A stretch of DNA of 64,000 nucleotides from a virus. The translations under genes and the position numbers were made by a program. The notes below the pieces were generated by a model. That model was not told where the DNA came from, did not search any database, and was given only the letters and a program-made list of their open reading frames with translations. The stretch spans positions 124,001 through 188,000 of the IMG/VR virus record IMGVR_UViG_3300044680_000280. One strand, written 5' to 3'. Each line of letters starts with the position of its first letter. Positions within the stretch are counted from its first letter, which is position 1. This document shows positions 5,924 through 41,022 of the stretch, piece by piece.

Positions 5924-6931
5924 CTATCCCGCGTGCTCTTCCAAAGCTAGAACGAGGAGACCTTCGGCTACCGCCGTCATGGGGTCTCTAGCCATACGGA
6001 TCTCACTGATGTTGACGGGAAATCCCTTCTTCTTGATTTCCCCGTACTCTTCCTTGAAGACCTGTTCGAAGTTACCAGCCAGCGTCGTACCGCCAGAAAT
6101 GACGAATGGGATGGGGTCGGGCAAATCGACGCTCGACTGCACCCGATTAAACTGAACCGCGATATTCTCGAGACAGTACCGAATGAGGGAACGGGCATAG
6201 AGGGCGATGGCTTCCTCATCCCGGTTGCTTTTGCTGGGATTGGCAATATCGACGCCACGTTCCTTGAGAGCGCACATCCGAGATGCCGTACTACCCATGG
6301 CTTTCGCAGCGTTCCGGTCGATCCAGTCTCCCCCGCGAGAGAGTGAGAACTCGAGACCCTTCACCGTCTGGTAAGCCAGAGCAACGTTGCACATTCCACT
6401 CCCAAAGGAGACGGCCAGCCCCGAGAAAGTCTGGTCAGCGCACTGCGAATAAATGAGGGCCATCGCCTCATTCATCGGGTGTGCCGTGTATCCCTGCTCA
6501 GAGAGGATCTTGCGGAAAATCTCCGTGTGGTAAACGATGTCCTGATCGGCATCGATGGGCGCCGCCGGCACTGAGTAAAAACAGTGTTCTCCAGCGACTC
6601 GGGGCGTTTCGACAACATCCTTGATGAGGAGACTCAAAACCTGCTGGGCCTTGAGCTCTCCTGCCGAAATGACTCCCTGACTGAGGGGACGTCGAACCTC
6701 CCGCTTGAACAGATTTGCCATGGCGAGAGCCGAATCTCCGATAACGATGAGCTGACCATCGATGTCCACGAAGTCTACCTTCGATAGACGGAGCTGCTTT
6801 TTGACCTCGGGCTCCAAGTCCAAGAAGGCGTCTCGGATTCGCTTGGTTGTGATCTTGTCTCCGACCTGCCTGGCCGAAACGACATTCATCGTGCCCAGGT
6901 CCAACCCAATTCCCACGCTCTCTTTGCTCAT
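5924..6931 (-). CDS. Actin-like (actin/Hsp70 superfamily) ATPase
   Basis: The 335-aa protein carries the superfamily's nucleotide-binding motifs in order. Phosphate-1 is GIGLDLGTMNVVSA (residues 7-20, D11). A connect-1-like helix is NEAMALIYSQ (154-163). Phosphate-2 is AVSFGSGMCNVAL (173-185), where the usual Asp is replaced by Ser175. RGGDWIDRNAA (199-209) matches the GGxxxD element, and FVISGGTTLAGNFEQVF (276-292) is the adenosine motif. The C-terminal DPMTAVAEGLLVL (317-329) also fits. Relatives form filaments (MreB, ParM, Alp) or act as chaperones or scaffolds (Hsp70, FtsA). It lies in an operon of tail and neck genes, not beside a recognisable ParR-like partner, so plasmid-style segregation is not indicated. 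It could organise assembly or DNA inside the host; that is inference. ATG start at 6931. Confidence 0.85.
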   Translation of the reverse strand: MSKESVGIGLDLGTMNVVSARQVGDKITTKRIRDAFLDLEPEVKKQLRLSKVDFVDIDGQLIVIGDSALAMANLFKREVRRPLSQGVISAGELKAQQVLSLLIKDVVETPRVAGEHCFYSVPAAPIDADQDIVYHTEIFRKILSEQGYTAHPMNEAMALIYSQCADQTFSGLAVSFGSGMCNVALAYQTVKGLEFSLSRGGDWIDRNAAKAMGSTASRMCALKERGVDIANPSKSNRDEEAIALYARSLIRYCLENIAVQFNRVQSSVDLPDPIPFVISGGTTLAGNFEQVFKEEYGEIKKKGFPVNISEIRMARDPMTAVAEGLLVLALEEHAG

Positions 6932-10920: not shown

Positions 10921-11205
10921 CTACACCGTGGATGCTGAGACCTTCTCCAAAATCATAGCGAGCAACGGACCGATCTTCTCGAACTCGGTCCTCATGTCCT
11001 CCGAGACTTGTTTGAGGAGAGCAACATCCTCATTGGTCGAGGTCACAATCCGTTCGATAGAATCCAACCGACGAATGACACCGGCGAGGTCGTTGTCTAC
11101 CTCATCCACATGCCTGGTTACAAGCTCGAGTTTCGGAGCCACCGCGGCAACAACGGCGATCATAGTCTCTGAGTCTAGATTCTCGAATGTTGCTCTTGTA
11201 CCCAT
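10921..11205 (-). CDS. Small coiled-coil protein
   Basis: 94 aa, almost entirely helical. Heptads run from about residue 25 (LELVTRHVDEVDNDLAGVIR) to the C-terminus. The ATG at 11205 overlaps the final base of the C-extein gene, so the two are co-translated. Possibly a trimeric or dimeric tail accessory protein or chaperone; no homologue recognised. Confidence 0.55.
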   Translation of the reverse strand: MGTRATFENLDSETMIAVVAAVAPKLELVTRHVDEVDNDLAGVIRRLDSIERIVTSTNEDVALLKQVSEDMRTEFEKIGPLLAMILEKVSASTV

Positions 11206-12089
11206 TAGAACCCCACAAACTTTCGTGGACTCAATACACCACGTCCTGCATAGGGTCCGAAAGCGCTTCGAATACCCGTACCAAACTTAGGTTGCTGGAC
11301 ACCCTTGAGGATGTTGACGGTAGCTTTCGCCTTCTCAAGTTGCTGCGTGAAGTTCTCTTGAGCCGCCTGCTGGGCCGCCTCGTACTTCGAAGACTTGTCG
11401 AGGTTTAGGCTCACCCCGCCGATGGTATAGTCGAATTCATCGGCAACCCAATTGATACGAAGCGCCTGAAGGGCGAAGACCATCGCACCCGTCAGAAGCA
11501 AAGTGCGCCACTCAGGTTTCATCGCAACCATGGCGTCAACACTGGCAAACGGTGTCCTAGGGGGAGATGCGATGATCTCATCAAGGGACCGCTCAAGGTA
11601 TTCCTTAAGTTCGTTATTTTCCCAAATGAAGCCGAAGACTCGGCTAAACTGAGATATGGTCTCTTCGTGGGTCGGCGGACGAAAATGGTAATTGCGGTCA
11701 GGAGAGTTTGACACAAGCATACCAGACTTCTGAAGGATGAAATTGTGCCAACCTTCTGCCGTGAGATCATACATGTAGCGACGAGAAGAAAGTCTCTCTG
11801 TAGATAGAACCCGAACTGATGAAGAAGCACCGGCAACGACCGTTTGGGGACTCAGTGACTCCACCTCAGTCTTGAGTTTCGGGGTAAGAAACACACGATG
11901 ACCACCAGTCAGGACAGACGAGCCTTTCGTTGTATGTACCCTAAAAATAGGCTCTGACTCGACCTCTGCGCGCTGTACTTGGAGAACTCGCTTCCACTCC
12001 TGCACCCCGTTCGGGGACACGGATCGAACTCGCAAGGTCCCCGTGTAGAATGCGGACTTGATTCTCTCACTTTGCTGGGGAGTTAACAT
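11205..12089 (-). CDS. C-intein plus C-extein half of a fractured structural gene
   Basis: 294 aa. Residues 1-128 are the C-terminal part of an intein. VSPNGVQEWKRVLQVQR is an early intein strand pair, VLTGGHRVFL is block B with the T-x-x-H signature (H64), YDLTAEGWHNFIL (107-119) is block F, and GMLVSN (123-128) is block G, ending in Asn128. The +1 residue is Ser129, a valid nucleophile. Residues 129-294 are C-extein, starting SPDRNYHFRPP; near the end a helical QQAAQENFTQQLEKAKATVN precedes a basic tail. The penultimate intein residue is Ser where His is usual. Splicing with the product of 12363-12860 would give a 299-aa virion protein joined at RDN|SPDRNYHF. The reading frame matches the N-half (offset 276 nt). 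Confidence 0.85.
   Translation of the reverse strand: MLTPQQSERIKSAFYTGTLRVRSVSPNGVQEWKRVLQVQRAEVESEPIFRVHTTKGSSVLTGGHRVFLTPKLKTEVESLSPQTVVAGASSSVRVLSTERLSSRRYMYDLTAEGWHNFILQKSGMLVSNSPDRNYHFRPPTHEETISQFSRVFGFIWENNELKEYLERSLDEIIASPPRTPFASVDAMVAMKPEWRTLLLTGAMVFALQALRINWVADEFDYTIGGVSLNLDKSSKYEAAQQAAQENFTQQLEKAKATVNILKGVQQPKFGTGIRSAFGPYAGRGVLSPRKFVGF
11706..12089 (-). other. C-intein segment (128 residues)
   Basis: This DNA encodes the excised C-intein, from the initiator Met to the terminal AAC (Asn128) at 11706-11708. The next codon, TCT (11703-11705), is the +1 Ser. The segment is much longer than the C-half of standard split inteins (about 35-40 aa) because the split lies near the start of the intein fold. 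Confidence 0.82.
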
Positions 12090-12345
12090 CGAAGTCCTTT
12101 TCCGTCCAGATCAAAAAGTCCCACCCCATACTGGCCGCATAGGAAGAAGCTGCCTCAAGTCGACGCTGCACGTTATGGTCCGTTGGGAGAGACAGCACCC
12201 AACTTGCTTTAACTTCAATGAGAGCAACGGTTCCATCCTGATGTGTCACAACAAAGTCTGGAAGCATCCAGCGACCGTCCGGAAGTTCTATTCGCGGTTC
12301 GAATACGTACTCTCTAACGGAGGGGTCCTGGTCTAATAAGGACAC
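12067..12345 (-). CDS. PD-(D/E)xK nuclease inserted between the split-intein halves
   Basis: A 92-aa protein with a GTG start at 12345 and an in-frame TGA just upstream (12358-12360). It has a PD-(D/E)xK active site: RWMLPDFVV (D30) and ALIEVKASW (E44, K46). The N-terminal layout (F-x-P-R-I-E-L-P-D-G) resembles the TnsA N-domain and small Holliday-junction- or homing-type nucleases. It lies between the N-intein and C-intein genes, in a different frame from both, and overlaps the C-intein start by 23 bp. Known fractured intein loci often carry a free-standing homing endonuclease at this spot; a PD-(D/E)xK example would spread the locus by cutting intein-free alleles. The homing role is inference from position. 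Confidence 0.75.
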   Translation of the reverse strand: MSLLDQDPSVREYVFEPRIELPDGRWMLPDFVVTHQDGTVALIEVKASWVLSLPTDHNVQRRLEAASSYAASMGWDFLIWTEKDFDVNSPAK

Positions 12346-12362
12346 AACGACAAGGGATCAGT

Positions 12363-12860
12363 TCAGGATGTGCCGTGAATGGCTTCGTATAGGTCACGGA
12401 TAGATACTACCATATTCTCCCCACTCACGTCAACTTCTATCGTCTCCTCTTCACCTACACAATTGTCCCTAAGTAGAATACGGAGTCTCCGACCCATGTC
12501 CTGCTCCGCGGACGTTAGGGTCGGTTCAATCGAATCCGGGTTGACCTTGTCAATAACCGAAAAGTTCATGAGCACTTGCTGAATGGGCGCCCCCGGCATT
12601 TCACGAAACGTCCAGCGAATGCGATATTCTCCTAGATTTGCGTCCAAAGGAACGATAATGCTCGCAAAGTACTCCCCTAGCGATGGGTTGACGGGCTGAC
12701 GACGCGGAGCCCCAACGAGAACTTCGCGTCCCGTCGTAAAGTCGTAGAGAGCGTAGCTAATCTCGGCAGCGTTCTCGGGGGTTCCGTTGACGTTGTCGAG
12801 AAAAATGCTCAAGTCGTTACGACCGAGCTGCTGTCCCTTGTAAAAAGCGCTACCGCTCAT
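12363..12860 (-). CDS. N-extein plus N-intein half of a fractured structural gene
   Basis: 165 aa. Residues 1-133 are an Ig-like virion domain (SYALYDFTTGREVLVG, then YRIRWTFREMPG and MNFSVIDK) followed by a helix ending RRLRILLRDN. Cys134 then starts an intein block A: CVGEEETIEVDVSGE, continuing to VVSIRDLYEAIHGTS at the stop. This 32-residue segment has the C-x(4)-T-I, G and I-R-D-L-Y landmarks of the very short N-halves of atypically split phage inteins. Related Ig-like domains occur at the C-terminus of 14406-15803 and in 16236-16640. The stop is TGA at 12363-12365. Confidence 0.85.
   Translation of the reverse strand: MSGSAFYKGQQLGRNDLSIFLDNVNGTPENAAEISYALYDFTTGREVLVGAPRRQPVNPSLGEYFASIIVPLDANLGEYRIRWTFREMPGAPIQQVLMNFSVIDKVNPDSIEPTLTSAEQDMGRRLRILLRDNCVGEEETIEVDVSGENMVVSIRDLYEAIHGTS
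12366..12461 (-). other. N-intein segment (32 residues, starts at Cys134)
   Basis: Codons from TGT (12459-12461, Cys134) to the last sense codon encode the N-intein. Standard split inteins have N-halves near 100 aa; 32 aa marks the atypical class in which the break falls just after block A. Confidence 0.8.
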
Positions 12861-13186
12861 TTGACCTCTTCGAGATCCTCCTGTGGCACAACGTGTCGAC
12901 CGTTCTTCTCGAGCTGTACATAGAACTTTCCAAACGGAATGTATTTCTCGATGGTACCCACGTCTCCGTGCCAGTGAGTTAAACCGTGAGAGGGCAGAAC
13001 CCTTACCCTCGTGCCTGGCTTCAGGCTAGACGGCACGCTCGCAACGCGAGCGACAACCTTCTTGACAATGAGGGCGTCCTGAAAATCTCGAAGTTCTCGA
13101 CTCATGGCCGTCTTTCCTTGGGACTTCCTCTTACTGGGAAGCCAATCCTCGTTTTCTGCGTCTAGGTGTATCTCAAGCTTGGCCAT
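12857..13186 (-). CDS. Small KOW/SH3-like protein, unknown role
   Basis: With the ATG at 13186, which forms a TAATG junction with the ADP-ribosyltransferase stop, the protein is 109 aa. The C-terminal half (LKPGTRVRVLPSHGLTHWHG, then VGTIEKYIP and FYVQLEKNG) looks like a KOW/SH3-type small barrel, which often binds nucleic acid or protein. The N-terminal half is charged and helical. Its stop overlaps the N-extein gene start by 4 bp. No specific function is visible. Confidence 0.55.
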   Translation of the reverse strand: MAKLEIHLDAENEDWLPSKRKSQGKTAMSRELRDFQDALIVKKVVARVASVPSSLKPGTRVRVLPSHGLTHWHGDVGTIEKYIPFGKFYVQLEKNGRHVVPQEDLEEVK

Positions 13187-14415
13187 TACTTCTTCTTTCC
13201 ACCACGTCCAACACACTTACCGTGTATGGCTGAAGCTCCCATCACAACCATCTCAGCCTCACCAGTATAATCTGTATTCGTTTTGGCTTTTGGGTTTGCA
13301 TCGGATCCCATGATCGGGGTCGTCAGATAGGACCAAAAGATATTTTCCACGGGAACCTTCATTTTGAAGGCGGTTCCAAAGCCGGTAGCTTGAGACGGGT
13401 CCGAGGAAAAGCTTGAAAGTTCCCTTGTCTTCACCACGAGGTCATCCCCCGGCTGAGCCTTATCGGCACCTTGCCCATTGACTCCCCTGAACAAGGTGAG
13501 TTCCTTCAATCCAAGATGCTTAAAAACAGCACGGTTGAATTTCAGAATCTCGTGGGCGTACTCTTTCATTGCTTGGTCCTTGGCACCCCTGGCCCGACCC
13601 TCTTTGGCGTCCGCCTCTTCCTTGGGAAGAGTGTAGCCCTCAACCCCGAGACTGCTCATGAGCCCATTGATCTCATCGGAGGGTGGTTGACCAGAAGAGT
13701 CCGTCCAGTCCATGACCAACCCATTATGGACCTTGTTCAACTTGGAATTGGACTTCAAATGCTTTTCAAAGTACTCCCCGATCATGTACCCGTTGACGTG
13801 GAGTAGCTTCTCAGCTTCAGACAACTGAGAGAAAGCCTCCTTAGCGACGGAGGGGGTGTCCTTGTCAGACCTGGCACCGAATTTCTTCTCGTATTCGGCA
13901 ACACCCTTCTTCATCTTCCCAATCACCTCATCCAAAGCCGCCTTGTGTTTGGAAAGGGTCTCATCTACTTCCTTGTCCGTAACGATGAGTTCCCCTTTTG
14001 GGGACATTCCAACAGACTTCTTGCTCTCCGTCCTTTTGCCATTGGACTTCGAAGGTTCGGTCTTGGGCTTCGAATCCGTGGACTTATCGGACTCTTCCTT
14101 AGGGGCTTCTCGAGGTATGGGGTCCCTCTTCTCAGGATTCTTCTTGGCCCACTCGTGGTACTCTTTGAGGGCCTTCCGAAAAACGTCTTTATCCTTGAGC
14201 GCCGTCGTAAAGGAGACATCCTTGAAACGGTCTCTGGTTTCTGGATTCGGATTGGGAACCTTTTCCGATCCGCCCTGATGGACCTTATCTAGCCACTCTT
14301 TCCACCGAGGCGGTACCCCACCCTTAGATGGATCCTCTTCCTGAGCGTCCGCGGTGCGGCCCAAGAATCGGGTCATAACTCTCAGAGCAATAGGGTTCAT
14401 TCGACTCAATCCCAT
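13186..14415 (-). CDS. Virion-operon mono-ADP-ribosyltransferase (R-S-E class)
   Basis: 409 aa. The C-terminal ~110 residues carry the three R-S-E landmarks of toxin-type ADP-ribosyltransferases: R310 in LTLFRGV, the S-F-S strand in ELSSFSSDPSQATGFG (335-337), and the E-x-E pair in YTGEAEMVV (E386, E388). This class moves ADP-ribose from NAD+ to arginine in target proteins. T4 Alt, an injected virion enzyme, is the classic phage example. Residues ~95-140 are a Lys/Ser/Pro-rich flexible linker and ~145-300 are helical. The N-terminal NPIALRVMTRFLGR resembles the start of the 123-aa protein at 58088-58459 and could be a packaging tag. Alternative start: ATG at 14400. Delivery with DNA to modify host proteins is inferred from context. 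Confidence 0.82.
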   Translation of the reverse strand: MGLSRMNPIALRVMTRFLGRTADAQEEDPSKGGVPPRWKEWLDKVHQGGSEKVPNPNPETRDRFKDVSFTTALKDKDVFRKALKEYHEWAKKNPEKRDPIPREAPKEESDKSTDSKPKTEPSKSNGKRTESKKSVGMSPKGELIVTDKEVDETLSKHKAALDEVIGKMKKGVAEYEKKFGARSDKDTPSVAKEAFSQLSEAEKLLHVNGYMIGEYFEKHLKSNSKLNKVHNGLVMDWTDSSGQPPSDEINGLMSSLGVEGYTLPKEEADAKEGRARGAKDQAMKEYAHEILKFNRAVFKHLGLKELTLFRGVNGQGADKAQPGDDLVVKTRELSSFSSDPSQATGFGTAFKMKVPVENIFWSYLTTPIMGSDANPKAKTNTDYTGEAEMVVMGASAIHGKCVGRGGKKK

Positions 14416-15803
14416 CCGTACTTAACTACCCGACAGGTCGGATCCCCTGGAATCGGTTTGGTCACGGCATCAACGACCTGAAACGGAAAATCTACCGTAG
14501 TGGGGGCACCCTGAAAGGTCACCTGATAGGACCACCTTATGAGCCAATTACCGGGTTGACCGTTCTCCCCCGACGTTCCCGTAGCGTAGTAAAGCCCCAC
14601 CTTCTGCATAACGGGGGACTTTGCGAATGGACCCGTCTGCATAATGAGCTGACCCCGAACCTGGTACATCGTGTAGCTCACGTTGTACGGAGAAATGGGA
14701 TTTCGAGAACGATCGAAGAGGCAGAGCATAAGATCCCCCCTCGTGAACATGTACCCCCAGCGAAACTGCTTGGTCAGACATGGATTGGTCTGAACATTCC
14801 CACCATCATCGGGGCACTTGCATCCGCCCCCGTGTGGATGGTATTCATCGTTACCGCCGCCACAATTACCGCTGTACGGATAACTGCCCTGACCGTACGG
14901 ATAATTTCCACCGCCCCCACAATCCCTACCCCGTCCAGGAGATAGTAATCGCCATCCCTCTTTGCGCTCCCAAATGTCTAGGTTCGTGTGACCGCACAAC
15001 CTCAACTGAGACCGCTCCCAGTTGTCAGGTAGCGTAGGTTCAGGGTTAGAACTGATGGGTGGGCAGACCGTAGTGACAAGAAGGAACGCGGCGCCACCAC
15101 CCTCTCCGAAGATCGGCATAGGAGCTGAATCCGCTGTCGTTGCAAATCCCAACGCTGAGCCACTCAAAAAATCGTAGGTGAAGAAGTTGGGCTCAGAGAC
15201 CGTAGCACCACCCGACGTAGATCCAGAGAGTAGAACTGCAATGTTGTCGAGAACGGTCGCCATGCCCCCGTCCCGCCCCGAAACGAGGGCAAGAAGATGG
15301 GGCACGGGTGTCGATAGGGTAGCAACCCCTCCGTCTCGACCAGTCTCACGGTAGACCGTATGCGGGGGAATAACTCCAGTGGCAACAATGACCGCCGAAC
15401 CGGCCAAGAGGGCGGTCACAGTGTCCGTTCGAAACGTAGACCCTCCCTGCAACGTAAGGATGACCCCACAGTCGACTCCAGACGCGGTGAATGTTGACTC
15501 GCTTGCTATCTCCGAAGCAACGCCGTCAGACACGAACACGGATTCACCGAACATGTCGGAAACAGCACCAACGTTCACGCGAGGCGTCAACGAGGAGTTT
15601 GCTGATGGGGAGGAGGAGACGGTATATTGAGCTGAAGCGTTGAACGCAATCGTAGCGCTTCCAGACGCAACAGAACCAGCCGCATAGTGCGCCTTTGGAA
15701 TATGACCGAATGACGAAGCTCCGGCCAGGTCCGTCGCTACGAAGTACCTCTCCGTGACAAACGAATCCGCGACGATATTCGCACTAGCGGACATCAGAGG
15801 CAT
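14406..15803 (-). CDS. Glycine-rich virion protein with C-terminal Ig-like domain
   Basis: 465 aa. Residues 1-250 are Ser/Ala/Thr/Val-rich beta-like sequence. Residues about 300-345 are a Gly/Cys/Tyr-rich segment (CGGGGNYPYGQGSYPYSGNC and GGGCKCPDDGG) with several cysteines, which could be disulfide- or metal-linked. The C-terminus (about 370-455) is an Ig-like domain (SYTMYQVRGQLIMQTGP, then NWLIRWSYQVTF and DFPFQVVD) related to the N-extein at 12363-12860. The stop overlaps the ADP-ribosyltransferase start. Likely a tail or baseplate decoration protein. Confidence 0.6.
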   Translation of the reverse strand: MPLMSASANIVADSFVTERYFVATDLAGASSFGHIPKAHYAAGSVASGSATIAFNASAQYTVSSSPSANSSLTPRVNVGAVSDMFGESVFVSDGVASEIASESTFTASGVDCGVILTLQGGSTFRTDTVTALLAGSAVIVATGVIPPHTVYRETGRDGGVATLSTPVPHLLALVSGRDGGMATVLDNIAVLLSGSTSGGATVSEPNFFTYDFLSGSALGFATTADSAPMPIFGEGGGAAFLLVTTVCPPISSNPEPTLPDNWERSQLRLCGHTNLDIWERKEGWRLLSPGRGRDCGGGGNYPYGQGSYPYSGNCGGGNDEYHPHGGGCKCPDDGGNVQTNPCLTKQFRWGYMFTRGDLMLCLFDRSRNPISPYNVSYTMYQVRGQLIMQTGPFAKSPVMQKVGLYYATGTSGENGQPGNWLIRWSYQVTFQGAPTTVDFPFQVVDAVTKPIPGDPTCRVVKYGWD

Positions 15804-16235: not shown

Positions 16236-16640
16236 CTATTGGCAGCCCGGCTTGTTGAAAGACGAGGAGAGCCCACCAGGGGGTCCTGAGGACGGGAGTT
16301 CCGTGACATCGTAGTCCTGAGCCGCAATTTGCGTCCCTGACGGATAGATGATCAGAAGCCGCCAGTACCCCACCGCATTCGGCATGAACCGTACGTTGTA
16401 ATACCCTGGAGCCCCTGGAATCTCGTTCCAATAAACTTTACCGGAGGCGATTTGGGAGTCTGTAACCCCAGAACCGCTGGTCAAAACCCAAGGTTGAGGA
16501 ACGTTGTTAAAAAAGAGGGCATCCTGAATTTGCAGGATCGTAAGCCCAGTAACGCGAGTGTACCCGTCGGGCTGAAAGAAGTCCGCCTGGTCGCGAACAA
16601 GCTCATTATTGTATACTACGCGCCCGCGTGTGGTAGCCAT
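16236..16640 (-). CDS. Ig-like virion protein
   Basis: 134 aa, all-beta. GYYNVRFMPNAVGYWRLLII and a YDVTEL end resemble the Ig-like domains of 14406-15803 and the N-extein. A Ser/Gly/Pro-rich tail ends in KPGCQ. Probably a small decoration or tail accessory subunit. Confidence 0.5.
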   Translation of the reverse strand: MATTRGRVVYNNELVRDQADFFQPDGYTRVTGLTILQIQDALFFNNVPQPWVLTSGSGVTDSQIASGKVYWNEIPGAPGYYNVRFMPNAVGYWRLLIIYPSGTQIAAQDYDVTELPSSGPPGGLSSSFNKPGCQ

Positions 16641-24709: not shown

Positions 24710-26287
24710 TTACTCACAACCAGTCGATGGAGCCGTCGTACAACTAGCCGCAGTCGTCACACTCTTCGTCGCAATGCAACTCAGGTAGTTCTTGTAGACC
24801 GTGCCGTTGGAACTGGGCGTAAAGCTTGTGGTATCATTGAGCAATTGGGGATTGTTTGAATCGGACCAAGACCAAGCAAAGAATCCGATGTCTTGTGTGT
24901 CCGCCCAACTGAGGAAAAGAGGCCACCAAGCCGAACCCGTAGACGTATCGCATGCGTAGTATCCAGTCTCACCTACAACGATGGGATACCCTGCCGAAAG
25001 CACCGCTTGAGCTCCAAGTCCCGATGATGGGTCACAGAGCTGACTGAAGGTGGAAGCAGGGTTCGTGGTGCAGCCGCCCTGGTCGTCGTAAACGTGCCAG
25101 CTAGCCGCGAGGTTGTTCGCAGGGTCAGTCGGTAGGTATTGGGTCCAAAGGTCAAGGTTGGACGAGTAGCCAGGACCCCCCAGAATGATGAGATTGTTGG
25201 CTCCTGCGGTTCGAACGGTGTTGACGAGCGTTTGCCAACCAGCAACCGCGAAGTTCATCATGGGGCAGGACCCGCTCGACGCGGCCGTACTTCCATTCAG
25301 AAGACACGCGAACTGCTGAGCTTCGGTACCCGAGCTCATATTGGGCTCGTTGAACAAGTCGAAGATTACGTTCCCATTGCTTGCAAAAAGCCCAGCAACC
25401 TGTTGCCAGAACGTAATGCTGTGATCGACGTCTGGCATCAAACCCTGATTGAGAGCCTGAGTAGTTCCAGGGGCTGACATGTGAAGGTCGAGGATGACGT
25501 ACATGCCTTCCGACGTGATGAGATTCACCGCCTGCTGAATTGGGGTCTCGTAGTTAACCCCACCAACGCTCGCATCCGTACCATTGATACCAAGCCAGCA
25601 ATCCTCATTCAGAGGAATACGAACGGCATTGATACCCCAAGACTGCATCGCTGTAAGGCTGTCTTGAGTGAGGGGAGACGGTCCTCCTTCGGGGGACAGT
25701 ACAACGGCCGGTGGACCCCACGTAAGGCAGAAGTTCTCCGAGCCAGACTCGTCAACTCCATGAAGAGTGACCTTGTTGCCATTCGAGTCGGCAACATATC
25801 CATGCGCCCCGCCCACGCCCACGACCGCATGTAGGCCACTTGAGGGTGGGAGGCTAGACGAAGATATTGAGGTCGTCGTTGTACTGGTCGACGAAGACGT
25901 TGAGGTCGAAGTCGAAGAAGCGGTAGAGGTCGAAGTAGAGTGAGAGTGCGTATGGGAGCTACTCGAACTCGTCGAGGTTCCAACAATGGTCGATGAGTTG
26001 GAACTAGAAGTCGAACTGGGGGACGATGTCAGCGTCATCGACGATGATGAAGTTGACGGGGAACTCACTGAGGTCGATGAGTGAGTGTTTGACGACGTTG
26101 ACGTCGTGCTGGAGCTGGACTCTACCGTATACGACGTCGAGGACGTCGACAGAGTTGACGAGGTCGTGGTGGACTCCGTAGAGGTTGAGGACTCGGGCGG
26201 TGGTGTGCCCCCGCCGCAGGCTACGACACAGAGCAGCCCCACAGTGAATAGAGATACGAATTGACGACCAATGCGGGACCAAACCAT
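24710..26287 (-). CDS. GH5-family glycoside hydrolase (cellulase-like) lipoprotein
   Basis: 525 aa. A signal peptide ends in a lipobox (VVAC, Cys24), then GGG. Residues 29-149 are an extreme Ser/Thr linker, and 152-500 are a GH5 (clan A) TIM barrel. Landmarks: R223 in INAVRIPL, H269 in ILDLHM, acid/base E314 in IFDLFNEPN, H398/Y400 in SWHVYDD, nucleophile E440 in IVVGETGYY, and W472/W474 in FFAWSWSD. All catalytic positions are present. GH5 enzymes hydrolyse beta-1,4-glucans (cellulose) and related polymers. The lipobox predicts export and lipid anchoring when made in a Gram-negative host, which is odd for a virion enzyme. It has a strong SD (GGGAGGT) before ATG 26287 and lies between two fibre genes. 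Confidence 0.88.
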   Translation of the reverse strand: MVWSRIGRQFVSLFTVGLLCVVACGGGTPPPESSTSTESTTTSSTLSTSSTSYTVESSSSTTSTSSNTHSSTSVSSPSTSSSSMTLTSSPSSTSSSNSSTIVGTSTSSSSSHTHSHSTSTSTASSTSTSTSSSTSTTTTSISSSSLPPSSGLHAVVGVGGAHGYVADSNGNKVTLHGVDESGSENFCLTWGPPAVVLSPEGGPSPLTQDSLTAMQSWGINAVRIPLNEDCWLGINGTDASVGGVNYETPIQQAVNLITSEGMYVILDLHMSAPGTTQALNQGLMPDVDHSITFWQQVAGLFASNGNVIFDLFNEPNMSSGTEAQQFACLLNGSTAASSGSCPMMNFAVAGWQTLVNTVRTAGANNLIILGGPGYSSNLDLWTQYLPTDPANNLAASWHVYDDQGGCTTNPASTFSQLCDPSSGLGAQAVLSAGYPIVVGETGYYACDTSTGSAWWPLFLSWADTQDIGFFAWSWSDSNNPQLLNDTTSFTPSSNGTVYKNYLSCIATKSVTTAASCTTAPSTGCE

Positions 26288-40950: not shown

Positions 40951-41022
40951 GGGGAGTTAGTTTAACGGGCAAAACACAAGGCTGACACCCCTGCAATACG
41001 GGTTCGATTCCCGTACTCTCCA
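40951..41022 (+). tRNA. tRNA-Val (anticodon GAC)
   Basis: A 72-nt cloverleaf on the plus strand, opposite to every confident protein gene. Acceptor GGGGAGT pairs with ACTCTCC (one G-T pair), discriminator A. The D stem is GTTT/AAAC, the anticodon loop CTGACAC gives GAC, and the T arm is ACGGG-TTCGATT-CCCGT. The anticodon stem has one A-C mismatch (29-41). The 3' CCA is not encoded. It would read GUC/GUU valine codons. It lies in the only island between the capsid and accessory genes. Confidence 0.8.

What the first reader, a model, noticed from the sequence alone, without database searches (positions are those of the whole stretch)
12067..12345. Compact PD-(D/E)xK nuclease as candidate homing partner of a split intein
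Most intein-linked homing nucleases are LAGLIDADG or HNH; Vsr-like (EDxHD) ones are known at fractured loci. This one has D30 and E44-x-K46 with a TnsA-like start, only 92 aa, GTG start, and overlaps the C-intein gene. It may represent another nuclease family recruited to split-intein loci.
Basis: partly seen in the sequence, partly recalled or inferred. Interest (0 to 1): 0.7.

Follow-up and report, generated by a model that had tools for sequence, protein, structure and literature searches.

The report
Decayed homing nuclease in split intein
A jumbo-phage gene is cut in two by a split intein, and the small ORF between the halves is the decayed tail of a TnsA-like DNA-cutting enzyme; intact relatives sit between split-intein halves in other phages, so this enzyme type looks like an overlooked driver of gene splitting.

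Summary
The ORF is real: 92 aa, GTG start, D30 and E44-x-K46, overlapping the C-intein gene by 23 bp. It matches the TnsA-like nuclease domain (PF08722, E 4.6e-9; Foldseek top hit TnsA). The gene around it is a head-tail connector split by an intein with a 32-aa N-half (12366-12461) and a 128-aa C-half (11706-12089).

The window copy is not a compact enzyme. In 12 other phages the same slot holds a 291-347 aa protein: about 200 aa of putative DNA-binding region, then the TnsA-like domain. In the window an out-of-frame deletion of about 200 codons removed the DNA-binding part and the first catalytic Glu. It is most likely a decayed remnant.

The nuclease occurs at this split intein and in none of 34 uninterrupted alleles. 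Intein presence is patchy on the extein tree. Related TnsA-like nucleases also lie between split-intein halves in cultured phages, in terminase (28 records) and UvsW (10 records). The same domain interrupts PhoH, and DNA ligase without an intein. I found no paper linking TnsA-like nucleases to inteins. Cleavage, homing and splicing are inferred, not shown.

The parts
12462..12860 (-). N-extein: N-terminal part of the head-tail connector gene, ends ...RILLRDN
   Evidence: 133 aa; contiguous with the C-extein in 34 uninterrupted homologues
12366..12461 (-). N-intein, 32 aa, CVGEEETIEVDVSGENMVVSIRDLYEAIHGTS, starts with Cys1; stop codon 12363-12365
   Evidence: homologous N-halves at 15 other intein-bearing loci; fused directly to the C-intein in the cis-intein allele L029
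12353..12397 (-). 5' remnant of the nuclease gene: old GTG start and 15 codons (VTYTKPFTAHPELIP), overlapping the end of the N-intein gene
   Evidence: aligns with the starts of L007, L008, L065 and L071; different frame from the 92-aa ORF
12351..12353 (-). deletion junction: about 200 codons missing relative to L007, L008, L065, L071; frame lost
   Evidence: codon alignment; relatives have 217-220 codons between start and the VVVxLLD motif
12067..12345 (-). C-terminal remnant of the TnsA-like nuclease (92 aa; D30, E44, K46 kept; first catalytic Glu lost)
   Evidence: PF08722 E 4.6e-9; AF2 and Foldseek TnsA; alignment with full-length copies
12095..12103 (-). GGAAAAGGA, Shine-Dalgarno-like, 5 nt before the C-intein ATG and inside the nuclease codons for WTEKDF
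   Evidence: sequence; equivalent purine-rich stretch before the C-intein ATG in L007, L008, L065, L066, L040; function inferred
11706..12089 (-). C-intein, 128 aa, with TGGH block B and C-terminal ...WHNFILQKSGMLVSN
   Evidence: PF14890 E 3.4e-6, below its cut-off; alignment of five relatives
11205..11705 (-). C-extein: SPDRNYHFRPPT... head-tail connector C-terminal part, +1 residue Ser; includes stop codon
   Evidence: 37 related viral loci; phrog_17327 head-tail connector, weak, E 0.002

Best explanation
The locus is a split intein inserted after RD(N/Q) of a phage head-tail connector gene. It spread with a homing endonuclease encoded between its halves. The intact enzyme has an N-terminal region that probably recognises the empty connector gene and a C-terminal TnsA-like PD-(D/E)xK domain that cuts it; recombinational repair then copies intein halves plus nuclease into the empty allele. 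Trans-splicing of the two translated halves restores the connector protein. In this phage the nuclease later suffered an out-of-frame deletion of about 200 codons. What remains is a 92-aa tail that lacks the DNA-binding region and one catalytic residue, so it is probably dead as a homing enzyme. The 3' end may persist because it carries the ribosome-binding site and start region of the C-intein gene. Shown here: gene structure, the deletion, association with the intein, patchy distribution, TnsA fold prediction, further split-intein loci. Inferred: cleavage, homing, splicing, loss of activity, reason for retention.
For: Full-length nucleases (291-347 aa) between the intein halves in L007, L008, L040, L065, L066, L070, L071, L073, L074, L077, L078, L080. 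34 uninterrupted alleles have adjacent exteins and no nuclease match in the stretch held. RSSYE, PDF and ExK columns are conserved, and the window lacks the first. The window retains the old start in another frame. TnsA is the top structural hit for the full-length and window models. A family profile aligns RSSYE/PDF/EVK with the Glu, Asp and QVK positions of TnsA at E 0.006. On the extein tree intein state changes 11 times, at least 7 by well-supported branches, and the window's sister is an empty allele. The intein tree rejects one extein clade (AU p 0.004). The +1 residue is Ser or Cys in 17/17 intein alleles and in 0/34 empty ones. Related nucleases at TerL and UvsW split inteins. L062 is an independently decayed copy.
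Against: No cleavage or splicing data. The remnant shows no detectable relaxation: window-L007 pN 0.15 against pS 0.73, and no faster nonsynonymous rate than L007, although sites are saturated. It still folds well in prediction, so a residual or new role is not excluded. The nuclease tree alone does not reject descent with the extein clades (p 0.26). Loci come mostly from metagenome contigs.
Confidence: 0.84

Rival explanations
1. The 92-aa ORF is a functional minimal nuclease that still cuts the empty site, perhaps as a dimer or with the intein as DNA-binding partner.
For: D30, E44 and K46 kept; confident predicted fold; strong constraint on amino acids relative to L007.
Against: Lost RSSYE Glu that is invariant in the full-length set, lost DNA-binding region present in all 12 intact copies, out-of-frame junction, no good ribosome-binding site before GTG 12345.
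Confidence: 0.06
2. The remnant ORF is kept as a translation bridge: ribosomes ending the N-half re-initiate at GTG 12345, read through, and deliver translation to the C-half start that overlaps its end.
For: N-half stop, GTG 12345 and the C-half ATG are closely spaced or overlapping; Shine-Dalgarno-like GGAAAAGGA for the C-half lies in the nuclease tail; the frame stayed open.
Against: Only the last tens of bases would be needed for the ribosome-binding site; recent deletion explains an open frame as well. This is compatible with the best explanation rather than exclusive.
Confidence: 0.3
3. It is a T4 gp4-type head-completion nuclease, an ordinary virion-assembly gene that happens to lie here.
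For: PHROG 218 (head closure) matches at E 8.8e-7; gp4 has the same TnsA-like domain; the neighbourhood is structural genes.
Against: A true gp4 scores 189 bits to phrog_218 against 30 here; absent beside all 34 intein-less connector genes; full-length copies carry a long N-terminal region, are found only between intein halves and are missing from most related records.
Confidence: 0.02
4. It is a TnsA subunit of a Tn7-like transposon.
For: Domain and fold match TnsA.
Against: No rve transposase (PF00665) and no TnsA C-terminal domain (PF08721) in the 406,734-bp record; relatives stay at one fixed codon of one gene.
Confidence: 0.01

Closest known systems
Fractured genes with split inteins and Vsr-like (EDxHD) homing endonucleases, Dassa et al. 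2009 (10.1093/nar/gkp095; paper not held, known from citations in PMC3653736 and PMC7090010 and from memory)
   Same: A conserved gene broken by a split intein with an endonuclease gene between the halves, mainly in phages. The same connector gene carries such a Vsr-like example at a second site in L039, L065 and L066.
   Different: Here the nuclease domain is TnsA-like PD-(D/E)xK, not Vsr/DUF559; the site differs; the window's nuclease is truncated.
Phage MIJ3 PolB split intein with HNH endonuclease (PMC6892783)
   Same: Jumbo phage, split intein, endonuclease gene between the halves.
   Different: HNH nuclease and DNA polymerase host gene.
PD-(D/E)xK homing endonuclease I-Ssp6803I (one of six families listed in PMC3943268)
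   Same: PD-(D/E)xK catalytic motif and homing role.
   Different: Intron-encoded, described as compact and multimerising; here a modular protein with a long N-terminal region. Direct homology was not tested.
Tn7 TnsA (PDB 1f1z, 1t0f)
   Same: Best structural match and PF08722 domain; Glu, Asp and xK positions align.
   Different: No TnsB, no TnsA C-terminal domain, fixed insertion site.
T4 gp4 head-completion protein (phrog_218)
   Same: Shares the TnsA-like domain.
   Different: Virion gene present as such; far stronger phrog_218 score and no intein link.
Atypically split TerL inteins in T4-like phages (phiR1-RT, HY03, Thanatos-2)
   Same: Short N-intein, TnsA-like nuclease, then C-intein: same architecture.
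   Different: Different host gene (terminase), different N-terminal zinc-finger/NUMOD3-like region; in Thanatos-2 the N-half and nuclease are one ORF.

Membership tests
Split-intein fractured gene with a homing endonuclease gene between the halves | Conserved gene broken in two at a site where homologues are continuous | tested here: met
   34 homologues with adjacent exteins
Split-intein fractured gene with a homing endonuclease gene between the halves | Intein splicing residues: Cys1, TxxH, terminal Asn, Ser/Cys +1 | tested here: met
   C1, TGGH, N128, S+1; Ser or Cys +1 in 17/17 intein alleles, 0/34 empty
Split-intein fractured gene with a homing endonuclease gene between the halves | Intact endonuclease gene between the halves | tested here: not met
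   Met in 12 relatives, but in the window only a truncated remnant
Split-intein fractured gene with a homing endonuclease gene between the halves | Protein trans-splicing | not testable with these tools
   Needs an experiment
Homing endonuclease (the TnsA-like set as a whole) | Present in occupied, absent from empty alleles of the same site | tested here: met
   15 of 16 occupied alleles carry it or a remnant, 0 of 34 empty
Homing endonuclease (the TnsA-like set as a whole) | Horizontal spread relative to the host gene | tested here: met
   Patchy state on extein tree, intein tree incongruent p 0.004; nuclease tree alone not significant
Homing endonuclease (the TnsA-like set as a whole) | Cleaves the empty insertion site | not testable with these tools
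   Needs a cleavage assay
TnsA-like PD-(D/E)xK nuclease domain (PF08722) | Profile score above the curated cut-off | tested here: met
   37.2 bits against 26.5
TnsA-like PD-(D/E)xK nuclease domain (PF08722) | Complete catalytic set (Glu, Asp, Glu/Gln-x-Lys) | tested here: not met
   Window lacks the first Glu; intact relatives have all
Tn7 TnsA transposase subunit | TnsB transposase and TnsA C-terminal domain present | tested here: not met
   No PF00665 or PF08721 in the record
T4 gp4 head-completion nuclease | Full phrog_218 match and presence in intein-less relatives | tested here: not met
   30 bits against 189 for a true gp4; absent beside empty alleles
EDxHD / Vsr-like homing endonuclease | Vsr or DUF559 domain | tested here: not met
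   No hit for the window or full-length copies; hits only for the site-B enzyme in L039

The most novel reading that the evidence does not exclude
Modular nucleases with a TnsA-like PD-(D/E)xK domain form an unrecognised phage homing-endonuclease family that repeatedly invades essential genes, mostly with split inteins (connector, TerL, UvsW, probably PhoH) and sometimes without (DNA ligase), and so helps to create split inteins and genes in pieces. The window is a late, decayed stage of that cycle.
Probability: 0.7. Interest if true: 0.75.

Novelty: new variant of a known kind. Interest (0 to 1): 0.62.

Why it matters
Homing endonucleases are grouped into six families (PMC3943268), and split-intein loci were linked to Vsr-like and HNH enzymes. 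A TnsA-like partner at three or four unrelated genes, including in cultured T4-like phages annotated only as 'endonuclease' or 'hypothetical protein', gives ready material to test how split inteins arise. It also supplies many natural split inteins with 30-40 aa N-halves, useful for protein ligation. One gene shows the whole homing cycle side by side: empty, occupied, decayed, and fused without nuclease.

Tried and rejected
Head-completion gp4 reading: tempting from phrog_218, rejected by a control gp4 and by absence beside empty alleles. Tn7 transposon reading: no TnsB. Hef homing enzymes as the same family: an annotated Hef-like enzyme (LIMEstone1 F-LimIII) proved Vsr/DUF559-like. Group I intron in the ligase locus L048: no Rfam match at gathering threshold. 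A scan of 84,980 bacterial and archaeal genomes with the full-length profile found nothing, and a plasmid search found nothing. dN/dS could not separate decay from constraint because synonymous sites are saturated. hmmsearch of PDB with the full-length profile found no TnsA; a broader profile did. One mixed alignment was too divergent for a contig scan.

Full report
Observation. The ORF 12067-12345(-) is as described: 92 aa, GTG start, D30, E44-x-K46, 23-bp overlap with the C-intein gene 11205-12089. PF08722 (Tn7_TnsA-like_N) matches at E 4.6e-9, above its cut-off. AlphaFold on an alignment of seven relatives gives pLDDT 89, and TnsA is the best PDB match by Foldseek (TM 0.74 on the query). 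The window lies in a 406,734-bp virus record, a jumbo-phage-sized genome.

The split gene. The C-half gene is a 128-aa C-intein followed by SPDRNYHFRPPT..., a weak match to a head-tail connector family. The N-half is the gene 12363-12860: a 133-aa extein ending RILLRDN, then a 32-aa N-intein. In 34 homologous loci the two exteins are continuous, reading RD(N/Q)|NPD(R/K) in most. At intein-bearing loci the residue after the insertion is Ser (12) or Cys (5). At empty loci it is Asn (32), Ala or Asp (1 each). Splicing needs Ser, Cys or Thr there (general intein chemistry), so this difference is expected if splicing works. In L029 the same intein is a single continuous ORF with no nuclease.

What the nuclease is. 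Scans with the nuclease, the intein and the extein recovered the same slot in other viral contigs. Twelve non-redundant loci carry a full-length protein of 291-347 aa: about 200 aa with conserved helical segments (for example ITGLSLGAIQR and AWEAGSFDFHRGRIR), then the TnsA-like domain with RSSYE, PDF and ExK. Every full-length member of this close family that I found lies between the halves of this split intein. Against TnsA, the family aligns its Glu, Asp and xK residues with those of TnsA (catalytic roles of the TnsA residues from general knowledge).

The window copy. The old start codon (12397) and 15 codons, VTYTKPFTAHPELIP, survive in the frame that overlaps the N-intein end. The sequence then jumps, out of frame, to VVVSLLDQDPSV (12351). 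Relatives have 217-220 codons between these points. The deletion removes the N-terminal region and the RSSYE glutamate. GTG 12345 has no evident ribosome-binding site. L062 is a second, separately decayed copy with a stop codon and lost frame. L083 keeps an open frame but has an altered N-terminal region. The window remnant shows no excess of amino-acid change over intact L007, though synonymous sites are saturated. Either the deletion is recent or the segment is still constrained. One possible constraint is visible: GGAAAAGGA, five bases before the C-intein ATG, lies in the codons for WTEKDF, and equivalents occur in the relatives.

Mobility. On a 45-row extein tree, intein presence changes 11 times (at least 7 on strongly supported branches) and is hardly more clustered than shuffled labels. 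The window's sister is an empty allele, L004. The intein tree rejects the main extein clade (AU p 0.004), with the caution that some branches are long. The nuclease tree alone does not (p 0.26). The same connector gene carries split or continuous inteins at a second and a third site in other phages, and at the second site the enzyme between the halves is Vsr-like in L039, L065 and L066 (Pfam tested in L039, the others by similarity of sequence).

Beyond this locus. TnsA-like nucleases with zinc-finger or NUMOD3-like N-termini occur in cultured phages. In T4-like phages the large terminase gene is split, YIDE|C...HN|CAF, with the nuclease between the halves. Pfam Terminase_6N runs to position 106 in one half and resumes at 105 in the other. 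28 records hold at least 80% of this nuclease, nearly all annotated beside or within terminase. In Thanatos-2 and G2494 the N-half and nuclease form one ORF. In Salmonella phage S16 and Proteus phage PM2 the UvsW helicase carries a canonical split intein (TIGR01445 E 4.8e-11 and TIGR01443 E 5.5e-6, both above cut-off, tested in S16) with the nuclease between the halves; there PF08722 is below its cut-off and Lys is replaced by Arg. Ten records hold this nuclease between helicase annotations. Campylobacter phage CP21 shows a broken PhoH gene with a fragmentary TnsA-like ORF; inteins in PhoH of a related phage were reported in PMC3322345. In L048 and L050 a TnsA-like nuclease with a zinc-finger-like N-terminus lies between two pieces of an NAD-type DNA ligase with no intein visible. 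Profile-profile comparison links the connector-locus nucleases with this wider set (E 8e-18 over 149 columns, starting about 55 residues before the nuclease domain).

Known or new. The arrangement of a split intein with an endonuclease between the halves is known (Dassa et al. 2009, cited in the papers read; HNH case in phage MIJ3). Six homing endonuclease families are listed, one of them PD-(D/E)xK, exemplified by I-Ssp6803I. Searches of the open-access library for TnsA with homing endonuclease and intein, or with homing endonuclease and phage, gave no paper making this link. Most subscription papers, and Dassa et al. itself, were not readable. I therefore file this as a new variant of a known kind.

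Limits. Nothing here demonstrates cleavage, homing or splicing. The DNA-binding role of the N-terminal region is inferred from conservation, predicted helices and analogy. The deletion has not been checked against reads.

Noticed in passing
window 5924-6931 (-): 335-aa actin-like protein with a very strong match to the Pfam family Volactin (PF25216, E 2.6e-72), in a phage structural gene cluster.
   Followed up: no
window 13186-14415 (-): 409-aa protein with a sub-threshold match to DRAT ADP-ribosyltransferase (PF07357, E 3.3e-4), just upstream of the split connector gene; possibly an injected ADP-ribosyltransferase.
   Followed up: no
window 24710-26287 (-): Glycosyl hydrolase family 5 (cellulase) domain, PF00150 E 1.2e-38, behind a Ser/Thr-rich N-terminal region, in a phage.
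   Followed up: no
window 14406-15803 and 16236-16640 (-): These upstream genes look like paralogues of the N-extein domain: the N-extein query finds similar weaker copies upstream at many related loci.
   Followed up: partly
L065, L066, L062, L080, L083, L039: The same connector gene carries further inteins: site B (DEF|SYSIGG), split with a Vsr-like enzyme in L039, L065, L066 and continuous in L080, and a third continuous intein near the C-terminus in L083.
   Followed up: partly
L048 1045-1872 and L050 1417-2238: TnsA-like nuclease with a zinc-finger-like N-terminus between two pieces of a DNA ligase gene, apparently genes in pieces without an intein.
   Followed up: partly
L087 467-2212; L086 1343-3094: Terminase N-half, N-intein and TnsA-like nuclease fused in one ORF with a separate C-half: a half-way state between nested and free-standing nuclease.
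   Followed up: partly
L070, L073, L077, L078, L080 (downstream of the connector gene): Long proteins with many RYGVENP-like repeats, probably free-standing homing endonucleases, lie just downstream of the connector gene in several intein-bearing phages.
   Followed up: no
window 40951-41022 (+): A tRNA gene (Rfam RF00005, 64 bits), on the strand opposite to the neighbouring genes.
   Followed up: no
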